NCBI GenBank assembly: GCA_001769195.1 | Contig: MEOK01000004.1 | Location: 124,001 to 188,000, forward strand | From: Bacteroidetes bacterium GWF2_40_14 | GTDB taxonomy: Bacteria; Bacteroidota; Bacteroidia; Bacteroidales; UBA932 | Direction: 5' to 3' | Length of the DNA stretch: 64,000 bases | Shown: one piece after another, positions 41,622 to 55,490 of the stretch | How positions within the stretch are numbered: position 1 is the first letter of the stretch | How the letters are laid out: each line of letters opens with the position of its first letter | Translations under genes and position numbers: made by a program | Notes under the pieces: generated by a model | What the model was told of the DNA's origin: nothing | The model's database searches: none | What the model saw: only the letters and a program-made list of their open reading frames with translations

Positions 41622-41804
41622 ATGAAAAAGGAAATTCAACAAAGTGCTCCATCTGGTGCTGTTTACGGACTTGGTCTTATTGGCGCAGCAATCTATTTCA
41701 TTTCTCACGCTACAACCTTTTGGTTAGGTGTACTAGGGTTATTAAAGGCTATTGTATGGCCTGCTTATCTTGTCTACGAAGCCTTAAAATCATTGGGTGC
41801 ATAG
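41622..41804 (+). CDS. small two-helix membrane protein
   Basis: The 60-residue protein (MKKEIQQSAPSGAVYGLGLI at its start) has two hydrophobic stretches, about 12-27 and 32-50, ending AYLVYEALKSLGA. Similar short proteins with SGAVYG and HATTFW-type segments occur in many anaerobes; no function is known. It starts 11 bases after FecR, so it may share that transcript. The next gene has its own promoter. Confidence 0.7.
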   Translation: MKKEIQQSAPSGAVYGLGLIGAAIYFISHATTFWLGVLGLLKAIVWPAYLVYEALKSLGA

Positions 41805-41852
41805 AAAATTCTCATAAGTATAATAATATTTGATTGAAAATGGCAAGTAGAC

Positions 41853-41906: not shown

Positions 41907-42710
41907 ATGAAAAGAGCGTTTTTAATTTTTTCTTTATTTCTGTTCGTATCAAATCTGCAGTCGCAGGACACTTCCAAAAACAATCCCCCAACCTCGCGAG
42001 AGGTTGATTTCATAACCTATCCTGTTCTGTGGCACCAGACCTCTGCTGAGTACAGGGCTCTGTGCTATCAGGCATTCAACGTGGCACGTACATACCTGGA
42101 AACAATAATACCTGCAAGGTTGTCCAATGAGCAGTATGCAATAATAACAGATCTGGACGAGACAATTATTGACAACAGTTTTCTTGAGGCAAAGAATATA
42201 AAGGAGGGAAAGGTATATGATGCCGAGGGATGGAAAAAATGGGTAAATTCAGCAACTGCAACAGGAATCCCTGGAGCGGTTGATTTTCTGAGGTGGGCCG
42301 CTGTACAGAATATTACAATATTTTACATTAGCAACAGGACAGTTTCAGACGTAAATGCAACTATTGAAAATCTAAAAAAGCTCCAATTGCCGTACGCAGA
42401 CAGGGAGCATATGCTGTTTCTTGCAGACGGTGCAACTAAGGAACCTAGGAGAAAGAAGGTGGCAGAAAATCACAAGATTGTAATGTTGTTGGGTGACAAC
42501 CTCAACGATTTTTCAAATGTTTTCGAAAGGAGGTCCATTCAGGATAGAAAAGCTGAAACAGACAAATTACATGACGAGTGGGGGAAGAGGTTCATTGTCC
42601 TGCCAAACGCTATTTACGGTGAATGGGAAAGTGCTATATATGACTATAACCGCAAACTGACACCTCAGCAAAAAGAGGAAAAAAGAAAAGAAAATCTAAC
42701 GGGATATTAA
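41907..42710 (+). CDS. HAD-family acid phosphatase / 5'-nucleotidase, lipoprotein e(P4) type
   Basis: The 267-residue protein has a signal peptide ending NLQSQDTS; no lipobox Cys is present, unlike Haemophilus P4. HAD motifs are clear: motif I ITDLDETIIDNS (nucleophile and acid Asp), motif II FYISNR, Lys in RRKKVAENHK, and motif IV LLGDNLNDF. Family members are periplasmic or surface class C phosphatases that remove phosphate from nucleotides such as NMN or AMP. The next gene starts 17 bases downstream. Confidence 0.88.
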   Translation: MKRAFLIFSLFLFVSNLQSQDTSKNNPPTSREVDFITYPVLWHQTSAEYRALCYQAFNVARTYLETIIPARLSNEQYAIITDLDETIIDNSFLEAKNIKEGKVYDAEGWKKWVNSATATGIPGAVDFLRWAAVQNITIFYISNRTVSDVNATIENLKKLQLPYADREHMLFLADGATKEPRRKKVAENHKIVMLLGDNLNDFSNVFERRSIQDRKAETDKLHDEWGKRFIVLPNAIYGEWESAIYDYNRKLTPQQKEEKRKENLTGY

Positions 42711-42727
42711 AATCAGACTATAAGACT

Positions 42728-44614
42728 ATGAAAGGGAAAATTTTTAAGGAATCCAGCAATATCTATCAGGATCAGGCAAAGATACTGCTTAATTACTACC
42801 AGCAGGCGGCAGAGAAAATTGTTCAGGAGGAGGAGAAAATAGAAAAAAACATAGCTTCTTTAGAGGAAGAGAAGAAGCCCTTCAAGGGTGAGTTGTCAAA
42901 AGTTGGTATATGGAAATGGGTGACTATGATACTTGTGATTCCGTTCATTTACTTCCTGCTTAAAGAGAAAGGGTTAAAAAAGACTGTTAATGAGATTGAT
43001 GGCAAAATTGCTGAATTGCAAAAACAGCACAAAGATATCTTCCGTGATTACAGGGTTAGCAAGCTGGGAGTGGCATACGTGCCCGTAGCCAGTCAGGTCA
43101 AGTATGATAACAGGAGTTTTATTGTGGACCACACAGGTGTTACAAAAGAGGCCGAATTCAAACTCCAGCTTTCAAGACAGAACGACTTGCTTGTGGAAAA
43201 AATAGATGAACTGGAAAAACTTTCAAAAGAGGCTCCGATTGTTGAAAGTTCAAACAATACGGAAGAGATAGATACGGAGCAGTACTCACAATCGATGCAG
43301 CATCTGAGTCAACACGATTACTTTGGCAATCTTGAGAGAGCTTTAAGGTCCATCTCTTTTTGTATGGACGACTTGGACATTACATCAGTCTCGCTCCCGT
43401 TGGTTGCAAATAACAGCTCATATCACGATTTTATCCGTGAGTTTTCCACTTCCGAAGTGCCGGAAGGTTCCCCTGTAATTGAGATATTCGACACTGCAAA
43501 GTATAACAAACATATAGCAAAGTTTCAGGAACTGAACAAGCTAAAGGACTCATTGTCTAAGCACACCGAGCAGTTCGAAGATGTGCTCAAAGGATTGATG
43601 GTAACCATGGCAAACTCTGTTCAGGCAATTTCTGCTCTTAAGGTTGCTTCCACAGACAAGCTTGTATTTGATTCCAATAAAGTTCTTTTCAAAATATTAA
43701 GATCGCCATATAACCATTACTCGCCGGTGCTCGAAAGTGCGGAAATTGAGAGAATCAGAAGCGAAAGCTTCAATTATGGAGAGTCTTTCACAGAGTACGT
43801 TCCATTTCAGCTGAAAAGCAGTTCTCGTGTGAGATACAACCTCTTTGCCGACACATGGGCAGCAGAGGATGGCAGTACAACAAATCTTCCATTTGGGATA
43901 CATCAGATTCACGAAGAGATTGTTGCCCCCATTGTCCTGAACCTTATGAGGGAAACCAGAATTGAGAGGCTTAAAATTTACAATCATATAAAGGACCAGA
44001 AAATCAATTACCTGAACCAATGGCATCAGGACACAGAGGATTTTTATGGCAGAAACAGGGCTGAGAGTGCAGATCTTGTAAATCTGATGCGTTCCACACT
44101 TGGGGAATACATTGCTGCCTACAACACAATGATATCTCTTCAGAAAACGGAAGAGACAATGAAACAGTCCAACGGATCACTTGATTCTACAGTTGTTGAA
44201 CTTAAGGGGAATTCTGTTGAAGTTCTGGCTGCTTTTGAAATGCAATCGAAAGAGTTTCAAAAAGTTCAGAACGAGTTCGAAAGCTATATGGATCAGTTGA
44301 AAGAAGACATCGACCTTAAGGCAGAGAAATTTGAACACATAGATTACTACGACGCTATGCTCAGGGACGGGACATCAAGAGATACAGCAATAGCAGCAAG
44401 CGAAATGCATAATCTGGATGATCGCCGTAAACCTCTCATTGCAGTGAACCCGCTCTTTGCAAAGATATCGGAAATACCTCCGGCCCCTAGTGTAGAGGAT
44501 ATTACATTTGAACACTTCTCAATCAACCTGCCTCAAGTAGCAAAGGATGCTCTTGCAGAGCTGGAAGAGGTAGCAGAACTGGAAGAAAAAGAGGACGATT
44601 ATGGCAACATTTAA
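42728..44614 (+). CDS. membrane-anchored coiled-coil protein, unknown (gene A of a four-gene set)
   Basis: I do not recognise this 628-residue protein. It has no signal peptide. A coiled coil (about 26-50, VQEEEKIEKNIASLEEEKK) is followed by one hydrophobic helix (62-78, WKWVTMILVIPFIYFLL) and a second coiled coil (84-103). The long C-terminal region is mostly helical and charged. It includes a predicted coil around residues 475-545 (VVELKGNSVEVLAAFEMQSK) and a Glu-rich end (LAELEEVAELEEKEDD). It contains no nucleotide-binding or catalytic motif that I can see. Its last 14 bases overlap the next gene, implying translational coupling and co-function. Confidence 0.82.
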   Translation: MKGKIFKESSNIYQDQAKILLNYYQQAAEKIVQEEEKIEKNIASLEEEKKPFKGELSKVGIWKWVTMILVIPFIYFLLKEKGLKKTVNEIDGKIAELQKQHKDIFRDYRVSKLGVAYVPVASQVKYDNRSFIVDHTGVTKEAEFKLQLSRQNDLLVEKIDELEKLSKEAPIVESSNNTEEIDTEQYSQSMQHLSQHDYFGNLERALRSISFCMDDLDITSVSLPLVANNSSYHDFIREFSTSEVPEGSPVIEIFDTAKYNKHIAKFQELNKLKDSLSKHTEQFEDVLKGLMVTMANSVQAISALKVASTDKLVFDSNKVLFKILRSPYNHYSPVLESAEIERIRSESFNYGESFTEYVPFQLKSSSRVRYNLFADTWAAEDGSTTNLPFGIHQIHEEIVAPIVLNLMRETRIERLKIYNHIKDQKINYLNQWHQDTEDFYGRNRAESADLVNLMRSTLGEYIAAYNTMISLQKTEETMKQSNGSLDSTVVELKGNSVEVLAAFEMQSKEFQKVQNEFESYMDQLKEDIDLKAEKFEHIDYYDAMLRDGTSRDTAIAASEMHNLDDRRKPLIAVNPLFAKISEIPPAPSVEDITFEHFSINLPQVAKDALAELEEVAELEEKEDDYGNI

Positions 44615-45518
44615 TTACAGGATAGATACACAACCGCTCGCGAATGAATTGGGAAATGTTTCCAATAATGTGAGCCTTACAACCGGCGCAATGGTTTCAA
44701 TGCAGGAGGCAGTCATTGCAGCAGAGGAGAGAGCGTCGGATTATGTATGTGACAATGTAAATACAGGATTTTATGCACTTATAAGGGCACAGATATCACA
44801 GAAACTAGCCAAGTATAAGAGTGACGTGGATTCTCAGACAATGCTTCTTTCGCAGCAAAAAAGAGCCCTGCAAAGCATAAAGGGCAGGATGGAGCGTGAC
44901 TATAACATGATATCACGCAGATATACAAAGTTGTTCGACGGACTTAATGCCAATTTGAGGACAAGAGTGTTCGAACTGGACAAACCATCGGTAGATTTTG
45001 CATGTAAGGAAATAGGGCGGATTTCAAACAGAACCAAGTACCTTACTGCAACTATTCCGGTAACCCAACTGGAATCTATTGCCGTTAGTCAGAAGATAAT
45101 AGCATCCAACTTAAAACAAAGGGGTTTTAAGGTAATTGACTCTATGACAAGTTTTATTCATGAGATAAATATTCAGAAAAAGCTGACAGATAAGATTCTG
45201 GTGGATGATTACCCGCAAAGGCTTGGGGAAGCATATATTCCAGTGATTGTGTACCAGTTTAACAGAGACAGGTCGGGTAAGGAGAATATGGAGATTGTAA
45301 TGACTGACACCGAGCTTAACGAGGCAGCAAAAAGTACAATTTCAGAAGCCCTGTATTCAGGACTTGACAATATTGAGTGGAGACAGGAAGATAGGTCTGA
45401 AAAGGAGATTTACGACGAGTTCTGCAGACAACTTTCTGAGTCGGGGAAAACGCCGAGGGAAAAAGAGGTGGCTTTAAAATTATTCAAGGCAAACAGTTAT
45501 TTAACTGCTAAAGTGTAG
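44601..45518 (+). CDS. helical cytosolic protein, unknown (gene B, paralogue of gene C)
   Basis: This 305-residue protein lacks signal and membrane segments. Its central part aligns with the next gene: NTGFYALIRAQISQKLAKYK, then KGRMERDYNMISRRYTKLFD and RVFELDKPSVDF correspond to INGFFRYIRSEISQQV, KGQMEQDFLRISGRYRKIFE and RIFAIDKPAFEF. The helices are rich in Gln, Arg and Lys, suggesting a coiled-coil bundle. The C-terminal 100 residues, with RQEDRSEKEIYDEF, are less alike. No known family recognised. It overlaps gene A by 14 bases and gene C starts 4 bases after its stop. Confidence 0.82.
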   Translation: MATFNYRIDTQPLANELGNVSNNVSLTTGAMVSMQEAVIAAEERASDYVCDNVNTGFYALIRAQISQKLAKYKSDVDSQTMLLSQQKRALQSIKGRMERDYNMISRRYTKLFDGLNANLRTRVFELDKPSVDFACKEIGRISNRTKYLTATIPVTQLESIAVSQKIIASNLKQRGFKVIDSMTSFIHEINIQKKLTDKILVDDYPQRLGEAYIPVIVYQFNRDRSGKENMEIVMTDTELNEAAKSTISEALYSGLDNIEWRQEDRSEKEIYDEFCRQLSESGKTPREKEVALKLFKANSYLTAKV

Positions 45519-45522
45519 CGAT

Positions 45523-46557
45523 ATGGGTTATAAGCAAAGCTATACAGAGACGGTAAGCAAGACAGTGGAGATTTCGTACGACCCTTCGAAAAAGGGTGGA
45601 AGCAAATCTGTGCTTGTCACTATTCCTGTGCAGATCAATATTGAGTTGGACACAGATCAGTTTGAATCGAGTGTAAGAATCTGTGAACGGAACGTAGACC
45701 TTCTTACAGCAGCAGTTGTGGCAACTGAGGTTGCGGAGGTGGAATCGAGAGAACGCAACTCCATTAAAGTTGCAGACTCAATAATCAACGGATTCTTCAG
45801 ATACATTCGTTCAGAAATAAGTCAGCAGGTAACAGAACTTTCACAAAAAGCTGAATCTCAGCTTATGTTGCTCAGGGAGCTTATGAAAACAGCCTTATCC
45901 AAAAAGGGGCAGATGGAGCAGGATTTCCTCAGAATCTCAGGCCGCTACCGTAAGATTTTTGAAGACCTGGACAGAGAACTATCCAACAGGATTTTTGCTA
46001 TTGACAAGCCTGCATTTGAATTCAAGATGGAATCGGACAACCATATAGTGAGGACGCTTAACAACGACCTTATAAGCACCATATCGGTTTTTGGCGCTGA
46101 GAACAGCAATCTGATTGCAAGTTTAAGCACATCGGTCACAAAGAAAAGGACATTGGACACTATTGACAAGGCTAAGCTTTTTCTGATGCATCAGAAGAGG
46201 TTTGCACTCTCTATTCAGGACAGTATGCTCAATGAATACATAGAAGGGACATTATACTCTCCTGTATGTTATGTGGAGTCTTCAAATATCAGGAGGCAGA
46301 CAGACAAAAACCTTTATATATCCAGCTTTCTTGAAGGTCTGGAAGAGAAGCTTCCCGGCGACGAACTTTTCCAGAGGTTGTCGTCTGATGATTACAATTG
46401 GGAAAAGATGTCAAAGGAGGAAGAGAATTACCTTCGCCTATACTTCGACTCCGAACTCGACAAAAAATATTATTCAAATTACGAACACTCTGTGAGAGTA
46501 CGCGAGACAATCCGTAAAATGGCAGATTTAAGTTCAATTAATGTTATCCAGCTATGA
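45523..46557 (+). CDS. helical cytosolic protein, unknown (gene C, paralogue of gene B)
   Basis: The 344-residue product is paralogous to gene B over about 150 central residues. An N-terminal beta-like stretch (SYTETVSKTVEISYDPSKKG, then SVLVTIPVQINIELD) precedes the helical region. The shared motif is a long helix, then RYRKIFEDLDRELSNRIF, then DKPAFEF. No signal peptide, membrane helix or catalytic motif is visible. Duplicate genes kept side by side suggest that the two proteins form a hetero-oligomer. Its stop codon overlaps the start of gene D (ATGA at 46554). Confidence 0.82.
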   Translation: MGYKQSYTETVSKTVEISYDPSKKGGSKSVLVTIPVQINIELDTDQFESSVRICERNVDLLTAAVVATEVAEVESRERNSIKVADSIINGFFRYIRSEISQQVTELSQKAESQLMLLRELMKTALSKKGQMEQDFLRISGRYRKIFEDLDRELSNRIFAIDKPAFEFKMESDNHIVRTLNNDLISTISVFGAENSNLIASLSTSVTKKRTLDTIDKAKLFLMHQKRFALSIQDSMLNEYIEGTLYSPVCYVESSNIRRQTDKNLYISSFLEGLEEKLPGDELFQRLSSDDYNWEKMSKEEENYLRLYFDSELDKKYYSNYEHSVRVRETIRKMADLSSINVIQL

Positions 46558-47534
46558 AAGAAATAAATGAAATAAGGTTTAACGAAACAAATATCCAGCT
46601 TAAAGACAATTTAGTGAAGGGCTCAATTCTGCCTGAAAAAATTGCAGATCTGGACCGTAACATTACTGTTCAGAAGGATACCATAATTGAAGGCGCAGTA
46701 TATTCCTATAAGCTTGAAATACAGCAGGGAAATGCAGATTTTCAGGGAGCTGTCTTTACACAACTTGAAATGTATATAAACACAGAAGCTGAGGGAGATA
46801 TAATTTTCAGAAAGAGTGTCGGATCGGCAAACTCAATTGTTTCTAGATCTACTACATGCACCCTTACTTTCTGCTCAGATATAAATGCAAAGAGGGTTAC
46901 ACTCTGTAATGCGTTTGTTGCAGGAAGTATTTATGCAGATGAAATAACCCTCATAAACTGCGTTGTAATAGGGGGCGTATTTGCAACACAGAGCGTAGAC
47001 TTCACAAACTCAATGGTTGGCACCTTTAACAGCCCTTCAGTAAAGGTTGCAGATCAGATAACAATACTTCTGCCGAGCGCATTTTCCATTGAAAAGATCA
47101 ACACGGTTCCGGGAACAAAATTCTACAACCTTTGCCTGGCAGACCTGGGGTCTCTTTATAAAGGGAATCCACAGTCGCCAAGTTCTGGACGTATAGAGAT
47201 GAGCGTAGATTCTGACGAGGTTAAAACAACTCTTACAAGCGAAGAGACACAGAAAACACTTCGTAGTTATACAGTTGTAGGCAAGGTTCTTGCTGCAGAT
47301 TTACTGGATGTTGACAAATTTCAGAATCACTTCCTTCTAACTGCGGCAAGCCTTGGATCTCAATTGCTTAAGGAGTTCGAACTTGGTGCCGATGCAAAGA
47401 GAGGTCCAGCACCTCTTACATTTGAAAAACTGAGGGAGTTTTTCTTTAATATCCTGTATGGGAAAATAGAGATTCAATCAATTGGTGGTAAATTCAATAT
47501 ATCTGAGATTACAGGGAAGTTCGGTCAAAACTAA
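46554..47534 (+). CDS. beta-helix / bactofilin-like protein, unknown (gene D)
   Basis: The 326 residues start with an apparent beta-solenoid (about 20-180) of short, regularly spaced hydrophobic strands: ITVQKDTIIEGAVYSYKLEI, GNADFQGAVFTQLEMYI, INAKRVTLCNAFVAGSIYAD, ITLINCVVIGGVFATQSVDF. This is like bactofilins and polymer-forming cytoskeletal proteins. The C-terminal part is helical (KNFLLTAASLGSQLL-like) and ends with a short strand-rich tail. No signal peptide. The family assignment is by fold impression only. It overlaps gene C by 4 bases and is 5 bases before the regulator. Confidence 0.8.
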   Translation: MKEINEIRFNETNIQLKDNLVKGSILPEKIADLDRNITVQKDTIIEGAVYSYKLEIQQGNADFQGAVFTQLEMYINTEAEGDIIFRKSVGSANSIVSRSTTCTLTFCSDINAKRVTLCNAFVAGSIYADEITLINCVVIGGVFATQSVDFTNSMVGTFNSPSVKVADQITILLPSAFSIEKINTVPGTKFYNLCLADLGSLYKGNPQSPSSGRIEMSVDSDEVKTTLTSEETQKTLRSYTVVGKVLAADLLDVDKFQNHFLLTAASLGSQLLKEFELGADAKRGPAPLTFEKLREFFFNILYGKIEIQSIGGKFNISEITGKFGQN

Positions 47535-47539
47535 GTATT

Positions 47540-49165
47540 ATGTGCGTCTCCTTTAGAAGATATTCAGTTTTGTGTATTTATTGTGTGATTTTTTTTTCGA
47601 CCTGTACCATTAAGCTGACGGCTCAGGATACAACAGAAACAGAGAGATCATGGAGTAAGCTAAATCCTGCAAGAAATGACATAAATGCTAATTACCTGAA
47701 TGTTTTAAAGGAAGACACTACTAAAAAATTTGTGTTGGCCTACAGGATTCAGCCTACAATAATTAATGCAGCTAAAAATGAGGAAGATAGCATAAATTTT
47801 GCACAGAAAGCAATTTCCAGGGCTATAAATTTTCTGGGAGAGGGTAAATATCAAATGGCACTGGCCGGTATTTATGAAGCTCTTAATATTTGTCCCGATA
47901 ACCAAAAGAAAATATCAGCAATAGCTAATTCTTATTATGCAATAATCCAGTTAAAAATTGGAAATTATTCAAAAGCTGTTTTGTCGTTGAACAAATGCGA
48001 CTCAATTATCAGGAAACTTGGAAATCTTAATCTGCTGGCATTTCATTATAACAATCAGGGTCTATACTACCAAAAAATTGAAAACCAGTTAATGGCTGAA
48101 AACCTTTTTAAAAAGTCACTCTCATTAAGCCGTACCCTGGGAGACGAGGAGAGTATAGCTATCAGTCTCAATAATCTGTCAAAAAATGCAGGAAATACAG
48201 AAGAAAAAATTGATTTTCTGAATGAAGCCATAAGCATAAACACAAAGCGAAACAGACAATTGTCACTTGCCGAAAATTTTAATAACCTTGCTTTTCAATA
48301 TGGTACTTTGAGCAGATATGAGGAGGCGGTTAAATATCTGGATAAAGCCCGCATTATTGCAGAAATGCTCAAAGCTCCGGATATTCTTTATGATAATTAT
48401 AAGATAAGATCTGATATTTATGGCAGACGAAGTATGTACAAACAAGCATATGAGTCGGTGCTGGAAATGCAGGAAATCAAGAAAGAACAGGAAAGAAAGG
48501 AGAATGAATTCGATGTTGAGCAGATGATTCAGAACAGGATTCTTGCTAAAAAACAGTACGAACTTAACCTGACAAAAAAGGAGATAGACATTAAGAGACT
48601 GAACACATCATTGATTGTAGCCATATCCTTATTTCTGTTCACTCTAATGCTCGCTTTTTATATCTACTATTATATCAACAGCAGAAGAAAGATTCAAAAC
48701 ATCGAGTCTAAACAGAAGATGGCAGAACAGGAGGCAGAGCATGCACAGACAGAATTGGTTAACGTAGCCACTTATCTAAATACAAGGAACGAAATTCTGG
48801 ATAATATCCAAAGCGCTTTGAGTAAGTCATGCAAGTTGCCGGAAAAGGATATTTGTTCTGAGATAAGGAAGATCAATATCTATATAAAAAGCCTGCAGAC
48901 AAAAAATGATGAGGTCGATTCTGTGCTAGCCAGAATTACAAGAATTAATGAAGGTTTTATTGCAAGACTCTCTGAAAAGCATCCGGAATTGACAAAGAAC
49001 GATAAAAACATAGCCCTTTTCCTGAGAGCAAGGCTATCGTCAAAGCAAATAGCAACTCTTATGGACTGTTCTCCCAAAAGTGTGAATATGGCCAGATACA
49101 GAATGAGGACACATCTTAATTTAAACAGTGACACAAATCTTGTGTCTTATCTTAACTCGCTGTAA
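47540..49165 (+). CDS. TPR membrane regulator with C-terminal HTH, last gene of the uncharacterised operon
   Basis: The 541-residue protein has an N-terminal signal or anchor (about 8-30, SVLCIYCVIFFSTCTIKL), then tetratricopeptide repeats (about 80-300: FLGEGKYQMALAGIYEALNI; NNQGLYYQKIENQLMAENLF; YGTLSRYEEAVKYLDKARII). A membrane helix (357-380), a coiled coil and a C-terminal LuxR-type HTH (about 475-541, TKNDKNIALFLRARLSSKQI then ATLMDCSPKSVNMARYRMRT) follow. Same architecture as the gene at 24224. Its position 5 bases after gene D suggests that it controls this operon. Confidence 0.85.
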   Translation: MCVSFRRYSVLCIYCVIFFSTCTIKLTAQDTTETERSWSKLNPARNDINANYLNVLKEDTTKKFVLAYRIQPTIINAAKNEEDSINFAQKAISRAINFLGEGKYQMALAGIYEALNICPDNQKKISAIANSYYAIIQLKIGNYSKAVLSLNKCDSIIRKLGNLNLLAFHYNNQGLYYQKIENQLMAENLFKKSLSLSRTLGDEESIAISLNNLSKNAGNTEEKIDFLNEAISINTKRNRQLSLAENFNNLAFQYGTLSRYEEAVKYLDKARIIAEMLKAPDILYDNYKIRSDIYGRRSMYKQAYESVLEMQEIKKEQERKENEFDVEQMIQNRILAKKQYELNLTKKEIDIKRLNTSLIVAISLFLFTLMLAFYIYYYINSRRKIQNIESKQKMAEQEAEHAQTELVNVATYLNTRNEILDNIQSALSKSCKLPEKDICSEIRKINIYIKSLQTKNDEVDSVLARITRINEGFIARLSEKHPELTKNDKNIALFLRARLSSKQIATLMDCSPKSVNMARYRMRTHLNLNSDTNLVSYLNSL

Positions 49166-49387
49166 CCTTTGTCAAAGTTTAGTGCCGTGTAGGTATGCTT
49201 TCATTTATCAAAGCTTGATAGATAGATAATTAATTATATATATGTAGACTCTATTTATCTCTTATATGGTGTTTTGTAGATATTATTATGCCCGAAATAT
49301 AGTGATGTGACAAGTTTTATTTAGAAATTTGATTAATAATTTTTAAATGGCAACTTCATTAACTAACATCTTATTATTATTTAAACT

Positions 49388-50839
49388 ATGAAAAGAAAAA
49401 CTACATTTAGTTTAGCCTTGGGAACACTTTTTCTTTGGGTACTGCTTTTCACCGGGAATTCCTGTACCAAGAATGAAATCTTCTATGAAGATGCTTCTGG
49501 AATTCTCTCGTGCAGATTTCAATTAAACGACGGACGAGTATTTGACTGTGTGGTTGATCAGGCCACCCTGAAAATCTCCAACACTCAGGACAGCATTCTT
49601 TATGGAACAACGCAAACTGTGATGAGTAAAATCAAACCGATCTTTACAACAACTATTGGAGCAAAAGTACTTGTAGATGGTAAGGAGGTAAAGAGTGGTG
49701 TGACTGAAATAGACCTCACAAAAGCACTAAAAATTGAAACAGAATACAAAGGAGCAAAAAGAGACTACTCAGTAACTGCTTTTGTAGAAAAACAGGACCA
49801 CAGTCAGGTATCGGGAGCAAAAATAAACACCGACATGAGATTAACTGGGCTTCCTGCTTTCAACGCCTACAGTGGAGCGTTCTTTAAAGGTAAACTTTAC
49901 CTTCTCGGAGCTTACTATCCTAATGGTACCTCTGCAAGTGGAACTGCCACATACGAGCTTTACAGTTCAGATGATGGTGGGTTGTGGACGAAAGTTACTA
50001 CAAATCCAAATGTTGTAGGAGGTTTTGGAGCTATTCTTACAGTCTTAGGTGACAAGATGTTTGCAATTGGCGGGGCACGACTCTATGGCAAAGACGTAAA
50101 TGGTACAGCACCTGAATCTTCGATTCTATGGAGGATAATGTCTACAACAAACGGTACTGACTGGACCGACTGTACGGCAGGGCAGGTAAACGCTCCATCT
50201 GGCAGGGCATTTCCACAGGTCTGTGTCCATAACGGCAAGATTATTCTCCGAAGAGGTAAAATGGTTGGATTTGGTATGTGGCAAAACTCAAATCACTCGG
50301 ACACTTATCAGACAACTGACGGAACCAACTGGACAAGGATTAATCCTAACACAACAACCGCTACAAACAGAAGTGAAGATGCTATGTTCTCATTCAACAA
50401 CAAACTATGGATTGTTGGTGGATTTGCAAGTTATATTAGTGAAACAAACATAAGGGACGATGTCTGGTCTTCTGCAGACGACGGAGCCACATGGGTGCAG
50501 GAGACTGGAGTTTCAGGTACAGATATGAAGAGATTTGGTCATAGTGTGGTATCATATAATGGAAAACTGTATATGATTGGAGGAGAAAAACTGGCAGGAA
50601 CAACAAGAACAGGTATAACAAACGTTCTCTCATCTTCAAACGCAATCAACTGGACCTCACTTCCGGCAGCACAACAGTTGCCTGTTGCTTTTACATCAAG
50701 GGTACGTTCCAATATTTTTATGGGAACAAATGATCTTATATGGATTATCGGTGGTTTTGCCTACTCCGGAGGAAACTACACTATAAACGGTATCACTCTC
50801 CCATACAGATATGATGTCTGGACAAAGAGGTTAAAATAG
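49388..50839 (+). CDS. Kelch-like / DUF6242 surface lipoprotein
   Basis: The 483-residue lipoprotein has lipobox TGNSC (Cys26). An N-terminal beta domain of about 120 residues follows (DUF6242-like), then about six Kelch-type blades with the repeated pattern of a strand, a YMIGG or WIVGG turn and a DGTNWTRI or DDGATWVQE strand (about 150-475). Such beta-propellers bind ligands at the cell surface. The gene is 24 bases before the second SusC and is its likely first operon partner. The 222-base gap upstream (49166-49387) holds no gene and no clear promoter match. Confidence 0.78.
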   Translation: MKRKTTFSLALGTLFLWVLLFTGNSCTKNEIFYEDASGILSCRFQLNDGRVFDCVVDQATLKISNTQDSILYGTTQTVMSKIKPIFTTTIGAKVLVDGKEVKSGVTEIDLTKALKIETEYKGAKRDYSVTAFVEKQDHSQVSGAKINTDMRLTGLPAFNAYSGAFFKGKLYLLGAYYPNGTSASGTATYELYSSDDGGLWTKVTTNPNVVGGFGAILTVLGDKMFAIGGARLYGKDVNGTAPESSILWRIMSTTNGTDWTDCTAGQVNAPSGRAFPQVCVHNGKIILRRGKMVGFGMWQNSNHSDTYQTTDGTNWTRINPNTTTATNRSEDAMFSFNNKLWIVGGFASYISETNIRDDVWSSADDGATWVQETGVSGTDMKRFGHSVVSYNGKLYMIGGEKLAGTTRTGITNVLSSSNAINWTSLPAAQQLPVAFTSRVRSNIFMGTNDLIWIIGGFAYSGGNYTINGITLPYRYDVWTKRLK

Positions 50840-50863
50840 CAGGAATTTTTAAAAAGACTTTTT

Positions 50864-53800
50864 ATGAAAAAATATATATTATTATTCTTTATGCTTGTTG
50901 CAACCACTTTGACGTTTGCACAAGAGAAAGTGAAAGTTTCCGGAACTATAAAGGATGCATCTGGTCGCACAATGCCCGGAGTTTTCGTTATTGTCAAAGG
51001 AACTAACCAGGCAACAGATACCGATTTAAATGGTAACTACGTAATAGACATTAAGAAAGGATCAACCATTAAATTCACTATGATAGGTTACATTTCCCAG
51101 GAGGTTAATGTTGGTAGCAATAACAAAATAAATGTAGTAATGCAGGAGGATAAAATGAACCTGCAGGAGTTGATCTTTACAGGATATTCAAAGCAGGAGA
51201 GGAGAGACATAACCGGCTCCGTTTCGACTATCCGTGCAGAAAGCATGAAATCTGCCCTTACTGTGGACAAAATGCTTGTTGGACAGGCTGCCGGGGTATT
51301 CGTTTCAGGTTCGTCCGGAGCACTTGGAGCTGCAAATCTACTGACAATAAGGGGCATAAGCTCTATCATGGGTGATAATAATCCATTATATGTAATTGAT
51401 GGTGTTCCTATTTACGGAACAAGCAGAAACGACAACTCAGCATCAACATCAGGAGGGTCGTTTCCTGCCTATTCATTTTCGGGGACCAATGTGTCAAGCA
51501 GTCTGGTGAATAATCCTACTCTTTCCTATACATTTGAAAAGAATCCTCTTACAACGCTTAATCCGGACGACATCGAATCTATTGAGATATTAAAAGATGC
51601 ATTTGCAACTGCAATCTATGGATCAAGAGGTTCTGCGGGAGTTATTCTGATAACCACAAAAAAAGGGTCCAGAGACAGGACAAAGATAGATGTATCATAC
51701 AACATGTCTATTGAAAATCCAATGGGTAAGCTTAACCTGCTTAACGGCGAGCAGTATAATATGATATATTCTATGTATTACCCGGGTAGTCCTTTCATCT
51801 CAAACAGCAATACAGACTGGATAGATGCTGTGACAAGACAAGCAGTGAGCAACAACTTTTCAGCTTCGGTTTCTGGAGGAACAGAAAAGACAAACTATTT
51901 TGTGAGCGTCGCCTCAAGCACCAATCAGTCTTATATTATAAACAACGACCTTAGCAGATTTTCATCGAGGGTTAACCTTGATTCCAAGCTTAACAAAATA
52001 ACCGTTATCGGAACCAATATCTCAATTTCGCAGGTTCAGAACAATGCTTTGTCGGCACCAAATATTTATGCTATGGCAGCCAAGAAGTCACCAAATCTTC
52101 CGATATATGCAGAAAACGGAAAGTACTTCTATGGTCAGGGAACAAACCCTTACGGAAATCCGCAGGCATACAACCCGGTTGCTATGGCATACGAGAACCA
52201 GGAGGGAACACAGGACAACAGGGTCACAGGTAACATATTTCTTGAAATCAAGCCTTTTAACTGGCTTACTTTAAGGAGTGACCTTGGTACCGACCTTTAT
52301 AATGTAAAGACATCTGTAAGGAAGGCCGATGTTCCAATCAGCGAAGTGGTATCAAAAAATCAGGCACAGGAAACCGTAAGCATGAACTCCAAATTTGTCA
52401 TAAACAATACAGCAAACATAACCAAAGAGTTCAAAAACCATTTTATCCAAGGTATTATAGGCCAGAGTTATGAAACATCCACTGTATATGTAAACTCAAT
52501 TTACGGATCTAACTTCTTTAGTCCTTATCTGGTTGGAGTTGGAGCTGCTCAGAACAAGAGCGTTTCGGCAGGTGGGGAACAAAAGTGGGCACTGTTTTCT
52601 GCTTTTGCACGACTAAATTATCAGTTCAAGAGAAGATACATGGCCGGTGTGACATACCGGATAGACGGTTCCTCAAGGTACAACAGAGATAACAGATACC
52701 TTGGCACACCATCCTTCTCTCTCGGTTGGAGACTAAGCGAGGAGAAATTCATTAAGGATAATGCCGGTTGGATAGACGACTTTAAACTAAGAGGATCTGT
52801 GGGTTGGTCAAGCAAGGATGCAAATTCAGGGTATTATGGTGCCCAGGCTATATACACTCTTGTAACAGGTACAAGTTATGCCGGCAATTCATTCCTGCAG
52901 ATGTCTCAACCCGGCAATACAAATCTGGGTTGGGAGAAAACAGTTACATATGATGCAGGTTTTGATGCAACACTTTTCAAAAGAAAGCTAGACATCACTC
53001 TTGACTACTATTACAAAAGAACCACAGATATGCTGTTCGGGTCCGATGTCCCTGCTTATACAGGTTATACAAAACAGGATCAGAATATTGGTGATATGTC
53101 TAATCAGGGTGTTGAACTGAGATTGAACTCATTCAATATTTCAGGAAAGAATTTTCAGTGGTTGACCACACTTACAATTTCAAGAAACACAAATAAAATT
53201 CTGAAACTCAATTTTGAGGGTAATCAGATGGACCAGCTGAACAGCTCGTTTAAGTACTATGCAGTAGGATATCCGGCAGGACAATTCTATCTGCACGACT
53301 GGGCAGGGGTGGACCCTAAAACAGGTAATCCTCTCTGGCGTTACAAGGATGGTACCATAAGCAGTGTTGCACCTGCAGCAAACACATCAACCTCAGATGC
53401 AAACAAGTTTATTATGGGTGTTGCAAATCCCGATTTCTATGGTGGTCTTAACAACTCTCTGGTTTATAAAGGGATTGAACTTAACTTCCTGTTCACATTC
53501 TCATCAGGTGGTAAGATGATAAACAACACAAAGGCACAGTTGATGACATATTCTACAAAAGATGCAAATAACCTGGATGTTGACATTCTCAAATTCTGGC
53601 AGATTTATGGCCATAACACAGGTGTGCCAAGTCTTGTAAATAATTCCATCACAGGAAATTACGATTATACAGCATCAAGTACAACCACCCGCTTTCTTGA
53701 GGACAACTCCTTCATAAGGCTAAAGAACATAGAAGTGGCTTACAATGTTCCGTCAGAAATCCTTTCGAGGACAAAACTTTTCAAACAGGTAAGGATATTT

Positions 53801-53953
53801 GCCATTGCAACTAACCTCTTTACTCTAACCCGCTATTCCGGAATTGACCCGGAGGTGAGTGCATTTGGTTCATCTGCAACAGCATCCGGTTATGACAACC
53901 TTACAATGCCACAGACCAGAGCATATCAGTTTGGTATAAAACTAGGTTTTTAA
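50864..53953 (+). CDS. SusC/RagA-family TonB-dependent receptor (no STN domain)
   Basis: This 1029-residue receptor has a signal peptide ending LTFAQEKV, a carboxypeptidase-like domain (about 24-100), the plug with DITGSVSTIRAESMK and the SusC signature ILKDAFATAIYGSRGSAGVI, and a barrel ending in FGIKLGF. The STN domain is missing, so it should not signal through FecR, unlike the receptors at 32053 and 60812. SusD follows 19 bases later. Confidence 0.95.
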   Translation: MKKYILLFFMLVATTLTFAQEKVKVSGTIKDASGRTMPGVFVIVKGTNQATDTDLNGNYVIDIKKGSTIKFTMIGYISQEVNVGSNNKINVVMQEDKMNLQELIFTGYSKQERRDITGSVSTIRAESMKSALTVDKMLVGQAAGVFVSGSSGALGAANLLTIRGISSIMGDNNPLYVIDGVPIYGTSRNDNSASTSGGSFPAYSFSGTNVSSSLVNNPTLSYTFEKNPLTTLNPDDIESIEILKDAFATAIYGSRGSAGVILITTKKGSRDRTKIDVSYNMSIENPMGKLNLLNGEQYNMIYSMYYPGSPFISNSNTDWIDAVTRQAVSNNFSASVSGGTEKTNYFVSVASSTNQSYIINNDLSRFSSRVNLDSKLNKITVIGTNISISQVQNNALSAPNIYAMAAKKSPNLPIYAENGKYFYGQGTNPYGNPQAYNPVAMAYENQEGTQDNRVTGNIFLEIKPFNWLTLRSDLGTDLYNVKTSVRKADVPISEVVSKNQAQETVSMNSKFVINNTANITKEFKNHFIQGIIGQSYETSTVYVNSIYGSNFFSPYLVGVGAAQNKSVSAGGEQKWALFSAFARLNYQFKRRYMAGVTYRIDGSSRYNRDNRYLGTPSFSLGWRLSEEKFIKDNAGWIDDFKLRGSVGWSSKDANSGYYGAQAIYTLVTGTSYAGNSFLQMSQPGNTNLGWEKTVTYDAGFDATLFKRKLDITLDYYYKRTTDMLFGSDVPAYTGYTKQDQNIGDMSNQGVELRLNSFNISGKNFQWLTTLTISRNTNKILKLNFEGNQMDQLNSSFKYYAVGYPAGQFYLHDWAGVDPKTGNPLWRYKDGTISSVAPAANTSTSDANKFIMGVANPDFYGGLNNSLVYKGIELNFLFTFSSGGKMINNTKAQLMTYSTKDANNLDVDILKFWQIYGHNTGVPSLVNNSITGNYDYTASSTTTRFLEDNSFIRLKNIEVAYNVPSEILSRTKLFKQVRIFAIATNLFTLTRYSGIDPEVSAFGSSATASGYDNLTMPQTRAYQFGIKLGF

Positions 53954-53972
53954 TATTAAAAAATTGAAGAAT

Positions 53973-55490
53973 ATGAAAAAGATAATAAAATCATCATTAA
54001 TATTATTCACTGCGGCGTTTCTCTTTTCCTGTAACCTCGACCTGGCGCCGGAGAATATAATGGTAGATGAGACTACCTACAAAGATTCAAAAACAGCTGA
54101 GGCTACACTTATTGGAGCCTATACCAGGATGAATGCTGCATTTTCCGGGGCACCCACAGGTGTGAACAATTATGCAAATACGGGTTATATGCTTCTTTTC
54201 GGCGAGATTGGAACTCCTACACTCAAACTCAGAAGCAACTCATCTATGGTAAACATGGAGACATCGCAGTATAATTCATCCGATCATGACGGATTTATTC
54301 TGGAAATGTGGAGAGTCACCTATAACGCAATTGATTATGCTAACAATATAATTTACAACATCCAGAAGTTCGGTGACTATGAAAAGCCGCTCATGGATAG
54401 GCATATAGCCGAGGCTAAATTTATAAGGGCTTATGAATACATGGTACTTTTGCAGGTATTCGGCGATGGTGCTCTTACCGGTGATAATGCAGGACTTGGT
54501 GCTGTTCTGAGACTTAAACCATATGATGGTTACAAACCTGAGGATATCGCTACACGGGCTACAGTAGGTGAGACATACACACAGATTCTAACCGATCTCA
54601 AAGAGGCACTTCCTAACCTGCCAAATGACGCAGCTACCAGCTTAAATGTAAGGACAAGGGCATCCAAAGTGGCCGCTTATGCACTTCTTTCAAGAATCTA
54701 CCTATATAGAGGAACATTCAAGAATGACAATGCAGACATTAAGCTTGCAGCAGATTACGCTGACTCTGTTATCAGCAACACAAAGGGATATTCCTTCTCC
54801 ACTTCAAGTACTCACCACACAAGTTGGCTGTTCCCGCTCAATTCAACTGGTGCAGAGACAAACACAGCAAACTACAGTGACGAAGTTATTCTTATGGCTC
54901 CGTGCTATTCAAGCGTGTCAAAATATGCCAACGGATTGGGAAGTTCATATTACAACAAGTCCAGCTTCTATGTAGATCCCAATTTCACCACACTTTATGA
55001 GAGTGGCGACAGAAGAGGTTATATAGATCCCGCAACTGCCACTGTTTCTCTTATATGGCAGGGTAGTCCGACCAGTTTTCCGACTGATTACACATCATAT
55101 AAGTTCAACAATGGGAGTGGCTATAATAATGTAATATATCTGAGAGTTTCAGAGGCAAAACTTACAAAAGCAGAAGCATTTGCCAGACTCAATGGTATAA
55201 ATGACGAGTCAATCAAACAACTTAATGACATCAGGAAAAAACCATTCGGAACCAAACCCGCAGACTATACTACAGCAAGTTTTGCCACAGCAGGCGAGCT
55301 TATTGACAAAATATTGCAGGAAAGGATTAAGGAACTGGCATTTGAAGGACACACAAGGTACGACCTTATAAGGACAAACAAACCTTTAAGGGATGCAACT
55401 GTGACAAATGACCGAAAGATCATGCCTATACCTGCATATGACGTACGGATTTCATATGGTACAATAATCCAGAACAAAGGTTATCGCTAG
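53973..55490 (+). CDS. SusD/RagB-family outer-membrane lipoprotein
   Basis: From ATG 53973 the protein has 505 residues with lipobox LFSC (Cys20); a TTG at 53964 is a weaker start. Typical SusD features include APENIMVDETTYKDSKTAEA, EAKFIRAYEYMVLLQVFGDG, YLRVSEAKLTKAEAFARLNG and the C-terminal ERIKELAFEGHTRYDLIRTN followed by KIMPIPAYDVRISYG. It pairs with the SusC upstream. Ligand unknown. Confidence 0.94.
   Translation: MKKIIKSSLILFTAAFLFSCNLDLAPENIMVDETTYKDSKTAEATLIGAYTRMNAAFSGAPTGVNNYANTGYMLLFGEIGTPTLKLRSNSSMVNMETSQYNSSDHDGFILEMWRVTYNAIDYANNIIYNIQKFGDYEKPLMDRHIAEAKFIRAYEYMVLLQVFGDGALTGDNAGLGAVLRLKPYDGYKPEDIATRATVGETYTQILTDLKEALPNLPNDAATSLNVRTRASKVAAYALLSRIYLYRGTFKNDNADIKLAADYADSVISNTKGYSFSTSSTHHTSWLFPLNSTGAETNTANYSDEVILMAPCYSSVSKYANGLGSSYYNKSSFYVDPNFTTLYESGDRRGYIDPATATVSLIWQGSPTSFPTDYTSYKFNNGSGYNNVIYLRVSEAKLTKAEAFARLNGINDESIKQLNDIRKKPFGTKPADYTTASFATAGELIDKILQERIKELAFEGHTRYDLIRTNKPLRDATVTNDRKIMPIPAYDVRISYGTIIQNKGYR

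What the first reader, a model, noticed from the sequence alone, without database searches (positions are those of the whole stretch)
42728..49165. Unassigned four-gene membrane/cytoskeleton-like operon with its own TPR-HTH regulator
Seen: genes A-D are on one strand with spacings of -14, +4 and -4 bases, and the regulator starts 5 bases later. A is a membrane-anchored coiled-coil protein, B and C are paralogues, and D looks like a beta-solenoid (bactofilin-like). None has a signal peptide or an enzyme motif. Inference: the tight coupling and the B/C duplication suggest a structural assembly on the inner face of the membrane, made under control of a transmembrane sensor that binds DNA. I cannot match it to any described system, so it is my best candidate for an undescribed one.
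Basis: partly seen in the sequence, partly recalled or inferred. Interest (0 to 1): 0.85.

Follow-up and report, generated by a model that had tools for sequence, protein, structure and literature searches.

The report
Undescribed membrane-scaffold gene cassette
Four tightly packed genes of unknown family turn out to be the core of a gene cassette shared by distantly related bacteria, where it usually travels with a flotillin-like membrane protein; it probably builds a scaffold on the inner face of the cell membrane, but its job is untested.

Summary
Genes A-D (42728-47534) are real; no library family above cut-off names any of them, and B and C are paralogues. The order A-B-C-D recurs in Bacteroidales, Prevotella, Treponema and a Firestonebacteria bin while the flanking genes change, so A-D is a self-contained cassette. 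In 27 of 35 cassettes with DNA upstream of A, two more genes precede it: X, an SPFH (flotillin-like) protein with zinc ribbons (PF13421), and Y, a small membrane protein. The window lies in a branch where X and Y were not found, and its genome has no PF13421 match. The 'own regulator' is not part of it: in 5 of 5 relatives fetched it heads the SusC-SusD locus that also follows it here, away from A-D. 'Bactofilin' for D is not supported by profile comparison; a solenoid is plausible. Best explanation: a membrane-anchored scaffold (A in the membrane, long-helix B/C, solenoid D) tied to an SPFH microdomain in the full version. That is inferred from anatomy and gene context and untested. My paper searches found no description of it.

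The parts
42728..44614 (+). Gene A, 628 aa, membrane-anchored coiled-coil protein with a conserved core of about 614 residues
   Evidence: relatives
42902..42964 (+). Hydrophobic stretch of A (residues 59-79), likely membrane segment; doubled or longer in Treponema, Prevotella and Firestonebacteria relatives
44601..45518 (+). Gene B, 305 aa, paralogue of C
44631..45044 (+). Predicted single long helix of B (residues 11-148)
   Evidence: mean pLDDT 76.6, pTM 0.28
45523..46557 (+). Gene C, 344 aa, paralogue of B with an extra N-terminal part
46554..47534 (+). Gene D, 326 aa, the most conserved member
46584..47123 (+). Repeat region of D (residues 11-190) with a period near 16, possible beta-solenoid
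   Evidence: not modelled

Best explanation
A-D is the core of a cassette, in its usual form X-Y-A-B-C-D, that builds a protein scaffold on the cytoplasmic face of the inner membrane. Shown by sequence: gene order and conservation, paralogy of B and C, SPFH plus zinc ribbons in X, several hydrophobic segments in Y, one in A, and no X or Y found in the window's branch. Inferred: A is the membrane anchor; B and C pair through long helices into rods or a lattice; D is a stacked solenoid scaffold; in the full cassette Y recruits the SPFH protein X, which organises a membrane site around the assembly, by analogy with YdjG/H, YdjI and PspA of Bacillus subtilis. The window carries a reduced form in which A alone would tether the scaffold. 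The likely role is organising or protecting the membrane, perhaps under envelope stress. The adjacent TPR-HTH gene belongs to the neighbouring SusC-SusD locus.
For: A-B-C-D order across phyla with changing flanks (among 118 mechanically picked neighbour ORFs no Pfam family hit more than 2). X-Y directly upstream in 27 cassettes; X matches PF13421 and zinc ribbons in 3 of 3 scanned; Y has 3-5 hydrophobic stretches in each of 9 rows. B/C homology; B residues 11-148 predicted as one helix. D periodicity. Window and seven relatives form one branch, SH-aLRT 100, with no X or Y in the seven of its eight rows that have DNA upstream of A; no PF13421 in the own genome while 4 of 14 control genomes ring. 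Purifying selection. Precedent for SPFH, membrane proteins and a helical partner: PMC8581546 (abstract and Discussion).
Against: No direct evidence of function, localisation or interaction. The A model is poor (mean pLDDT 57.1) and the B model extended (pTM 0.28); neither matched a fold at E 0.001. C, D, X and Y were not modelled. No PspA or ESCRT family is listed for A, B or C of the window at E up to 1. The SPFH link rests on gene context in other genomes; the window's own genome has no PF13421 protein.
Confidence: 0.45

Rival explanations
1. A-D is a shape or cell-wall cytoskeleton: D polymerises like a bactofilin and, through A-C, positions wall synthesis or another machine, with no role in membrane stress.
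For: D has a repeat near 16 residues, and its hydropathy offset of 6 (z 2.6) is also the strongest in the bactofilin yardstick (z 3.5); sub-threshold Bactofilin hits in 12 of 16 D proteins; tethering by a membrane protein fits.
Against: hhalign gives no support for bactofilin kinship; the own genome already has a true bactofilin; no wall enzyme recurs beside the cassette (Peptidase_M23 in 2 of 118); distribution is patchy, unlike a core shape gene.
Confidence: 0.2
2. A-D (or X-Y-A-B-C-D) is a defence or conflict system acting at the membrane, for example against phages.
For: Patchy distribution within a genus (11 of 60 relatives, own included) and occurrence in distant phyla resemble mobile accessory systems; single PADLOC hits to Cas4, ThsB-like and KwaA-like models among 118 neighbours (which does not name the members).
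Against: A-D match no PADLOC model at E up to 1; no enzyme or toxin domain in A-D; only single defence hits among neighbours; strong purifying selection.
Confidence: 0.12
3. A-D is part of a secretion, injection or phage-derived apparatus.
For: Tight operon of structural-looking genes.
Against: A: no relative in phage records or viral contigs; D: none in viral contigs or plasmids; no PHROG above noise for A-D; no tail, baseplate or ATPase gene in the cassette.
Confidence: 0.04
4. A-D is an operon controlled by the adjacent transmembrane TPR-HTH protein R.
For: R starts 5 bases after D on the same strand, so co-transcription in this genome is possible.
Against: R relatives sit beside SusC-SusD and away from A-D in 5 of 5 regions fetched; no R relative in the other cassette loci.
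Confidence: 0.05

Closest known systems
Bacillus subtilis pspA-ydjGHI (SPFH protein YdjI with PspA)
   Same: In the full cassette an SPFH protein with C-terminal zinc ribbons (PF13421) is encoded with a membrane protein and soluble helical proteins; PF13421 also rings in B. subtilis (that the ringing protein is YdjI is my inference).
   Different: None of A-D of the window lists PspA at E up to 1; Y matched no shared Pfam family and was not compared with YdjG or YdjH; the window has no SPFH gene; D has no counterpart there.
Bactofilins (PF04519)
   Same: D looks like a repeat protein; sub-threshold Pfam hits in 12 of 16 members.
   Different: 326 aa with a conserved C-terminal part, against 126 aa for the genome's own bactofilin; profile comparison gives no support; fixed neighbours A-C.
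PSP operons with band-7 proteins (PMC11237479; PMC9239133)
   Same: Recurrent theme of band-7 (SPFH) proteins with membrane proteins and helical proteins; PMC9239133 names Bacteroidota among phyla with band-7 genes next to pspA (passages).
   Different: No PspA listed for A-C; the word bactofilin does not occur in the main text of PMC11237479; only passages of both papers were seen.

Membership tests
Bactofilin (PF04519) | Match to the Bactofilin profile above the gathering score | tested here: not met
   16.0 bits against cut-off 27.9 for the window's D; best of 16 members E 0.0011; hhalign probability 4.3, reversed control 5.5
Bactofilin (PF04519) | Beta-helical core that polymerises | not testable with these tools
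PSP / ESCRT-III (PspA, Snf7) | Pfam match to PspA/IM30 or Snf7 in A, B or C | tested here: not met
   None at E up to 1 for the window's A, B and C. Scans of relatives list none either, but searches show only the first 25 of 53 and of 33 families; one search shows all 24
SPFH zinc-ribbon (YdjI-type) system | PF13421 SPFH protein with zinc ribbons encoded with the cassette | tested here: not met
   Not met in the window, whose genome has no PF13421 match at E 0.001; met in the full cassettes scanned, 3 of 3 X proteins
SPFH zinc-ribbon (YdjI-type) system | SPFH protein needed to bring partner proteins to the membrane | not testable with these tools
   Needs localisation in cells
Known anti-phage defence systems | A-D match a PADLOC model | tested here: not met
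   0 families for each of A, B, C and D at E up to 1
Phage or injection apparatus | Relatives in phage or viral records | tested here: not met
   A: none in viral contigs or phage records; D: none in viral contigs; B and C were not searched there

The most novel reading that the evidence does not exclude
X-Y-A-B-C-D is a so far unnamed class of membrane-attached scaffold, built from protein families without characterised relatives (A, B/C, D, Y) around an SPFH membrane-organising protein, spread over Bacteroidota, Spirochaetota and at least one Firestonebacteria bin, and stripped to an SPFH-free core in the branch of the window.
Probability: 0.4. Interest if true: 0.8.

Novelty: new variant of a known kind. 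Interest (0 to 1): 0.6.

Why it matters
A fixed gene order across Bacteroidota, Spirochaetota and a Firestonebacteria bin, under purifying selection where tested, points to a real machine that current annotation cannot name. It would link flotillin-type membrane organisation with a long-helix and solenoid scaffold in anaerobes whose cell biology is little studied. The natural X-Y-less version in the window's branch offers a ready comparison of what the SPFH part contributes.

Full report
What is there. One search confirms five ORFs on the + strand at the stated places: A 42728-44614, B 44601-45518, C 45523-46557, D 46554-47534 and R 47540-49165, with the stated spacings. A-D match no family above cut-off in Pfam, NCBIfam, PHROGs or PADLOC. 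R has TPR repeats and a LuxR-type HTH. B and C are paralogues: 30% identity, E 1.8e-25, hhalign probability 100 over 294 columns.

Conservation. A scan of genome contigs with A found 23 loci: Bacteroidales and other Bacteroidetes bins, bins labelled Chitinophagaceae and Ignavibacteriae, Prevotella, Treponema, a Spirochaetia record and a Firestonebacteria bin; by title all but the Spirochaetia record (MS499-44) are MAG or uncultured records. B follows A in 22 of 23; in the other (L025) the contig ends 320 bases after A and no B was seen. C follows B in 18 of the 18 that extend past B, and D follows C in 16 of the 17 that extend past C, one of them cut by the contig end. The exception is L042, where C is followed by an ORF that I read by eye as Cas4-like and another as Cas1-like; one of 118 neighbour proteins hit Cas4 models (which does not name it). 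Mean column identity is 73% for D, 56% for B, 52% for A with its variable tail, and 50% for C. Between L031 and L037 dN/dS is 0.039, 0.046, 0.077 and 0.026 for A, B, C and D. Of 118 neighbour ORFs picked mechanically from 27 loci (up to three a side, 100-700 aa; at least one, L057:7316-8332, is a shadow of D), no Pfam family at E 1e-5 hit more than two. The cassette therefore looks like a unit of its own.

The two other genes. Directly upstream of A most loci carry X (about 380-435 aa) and Y (226-239 aa in nine aligned rows). X matches SPFH family PF13421 at E 4.8e-37, 3.9e-35 and 1.5e-21 in the three scanned, plus C-terminal zinc ribbons; its mean column identity is 59% over ten rows from three phyla. 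Y has 3-5 hydrophobic stretches per row and no shared Pfam family. X and Y were found in 18 loci (14 plus L055-L058; L054 is the genome of L027 and is not counted again) and in 9 of 9 further Treponema-family regions (L117-L125): 27. They were not found in 8 cassettes with sequence upstream of A: the window, L028, L029, L030, L031, L034, L037 and L060. L028 has only 775 bases upstream, and in L060 A itself lacks its first part. L035, L036 and L040 begin inside A and cannot be judged. Dropped before these counts: repeat fetches of the same genomes, and L061 and L063, which came from fragmentary or marginal D matches.

The reduced form. On a tree of concatenated A-D (26 rows; L021, L025, L043 and L117-L125 not included) the window, L028, L029, L036, L030, L031, L034 and L037 form one branch (SH-aLRT 100; 1.000 in FastTree). 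The fewest changes of X-Y state on it is 2, the second being L060. The own genome (97.5% complete, 42 contigs) has no PF13421 match at E 0.001, while 4 of 14 control genomes ring, B. subtilis among them. In that branch A is 615-628 aa in the seven rows with a whole A; in the 13 X-Y-bearing loci it is 623-851 aa, and 638 or more in 12 of 13.

Distribution. B matches 11 of 60 relatives, own genome included. D matches 9 of 295 genomes of the order, own included, 7 of them full-length, and 1 of 395 of the phylum sample, the own genome. A matches 25 of 195 genomes of the family of a Treponema bin, that bin included, one of them by a 43-residue fragment only. The genus of the window holds both versions: G010 has X-Y and lies in another branch (L058). 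Horizontal transfer or repeated loss could explain this; I did not test which.

The regulator. R has relatives at E 1e-30 in 6 of the 59 other relatives searched. Three of these (G004, G006, G018) had no B match. In the three that have both, R and the cassette are on different contigs (G016, G017) or about 1.5 Mb apart (G010). In five regions fetched, R (49-52% identity) is followed by SusC and SusD relatives in 5 of 5 and by the kelch gene in 4 of 5, as at 49388-55490 in the window, and none holds A-D. No R relative was found in the other cassette loci. R thus belongs with the downstream locus.

Structure. The AlphaFold2 model of B (20 rows) has mean pLDDT 76.6 and pTM 0.28: a 138-residue helix (11-148), a second helix and a small alpha/beta part. 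The A model is poor (57.1). No fold match was found, which does not show a new fold. D: among offsets 2-39 the profile self-similarity is highest at 16 (z 3.4) and nearly so at 34 (z 3.3); hydropathy peaks at 6 (z 2.6) with z 2.0 at 16, none corrected for the number tried. Against 29 bactofilins from relatives hhalign gives probability 4.3, and 5.5 against the reversed alignment, so kinship is not supported. The single hydrophobic stretch of A is doubled or longer in Treponema, Prevotella and Firestonebacteria relatives, and one relative (L032) has none above the threshold; a membrane hairpin that keeps both flanks in the cytoplasm is possible but inferred.

How it may work. In B. subtilis the SPFH protein YdjI, with the membrane proteins YdjG and YdjH, is required to bring PspA to the membrane, and its loss changes membrane fluidity (PMC8581546, abstract and Discussion). 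PSP surveys report recurrent band-7 neighbours (PMC9239133, PMC11237479, passages), and an ESCRT survey draws the same link (PMC10936438, passages). By analogy X-Y would mark a membrane site and A-B-C-D would be the scaffold. This step is inference from gene context; in the window's genome A-D must work without X. Nothing has been tested in cells.

Novelty. The paper searches (open-licence PMC papers only) showed no description of the cassette. The SPFH protein places the full cassette near a known kind of membrane-organising operon; A-D and Y have no characterised relatives in the libraries used. Hence 'new variant of a known kind', with the bolder reading kept in the section on the most novel reading.

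Noticed in passing
window 47540-55490: R (TPR-HTH), a kelch-repeat gene, SusC and SusD recur as a unit in relatives (R-SusC-SusD in 5 of 5, kelch in 4 of 5), so R looks like the regulator of this SusC-SusD locus.
   Followed up: yes
window 41907-42710: Acid phosphatase of the lipoprotein e(P4) family (TIGR01533, E 1e-81) ends 17 bases before A and may share its transcript; a 70% identical gene lies about 3.3 kb after D in L029.
   Followed up: partly
L042 11097-12621: In a Treponema bin D is missing after C, and ORFs that I read as Cas4-like and Cas1-like follow; no D was found in that genome.
   Followed up: partly
L043 10001-12170; G785, G843, G777: A is split or holds an in-frame stop in 4 of the 25 genomes with an A match, which may be decay or sequencing error.
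   Followed up: no
L024 10001-12412: The variable tail of A carries its own zinc ribbons, the kind also found in X, hinting at a shared partner.
   Followed up: no
window 41623-41805: Possible small membrane protein of about 60 residues between the FecR-like gene and the P4 phosphatase gene, seen by eye.
   Followed up: no
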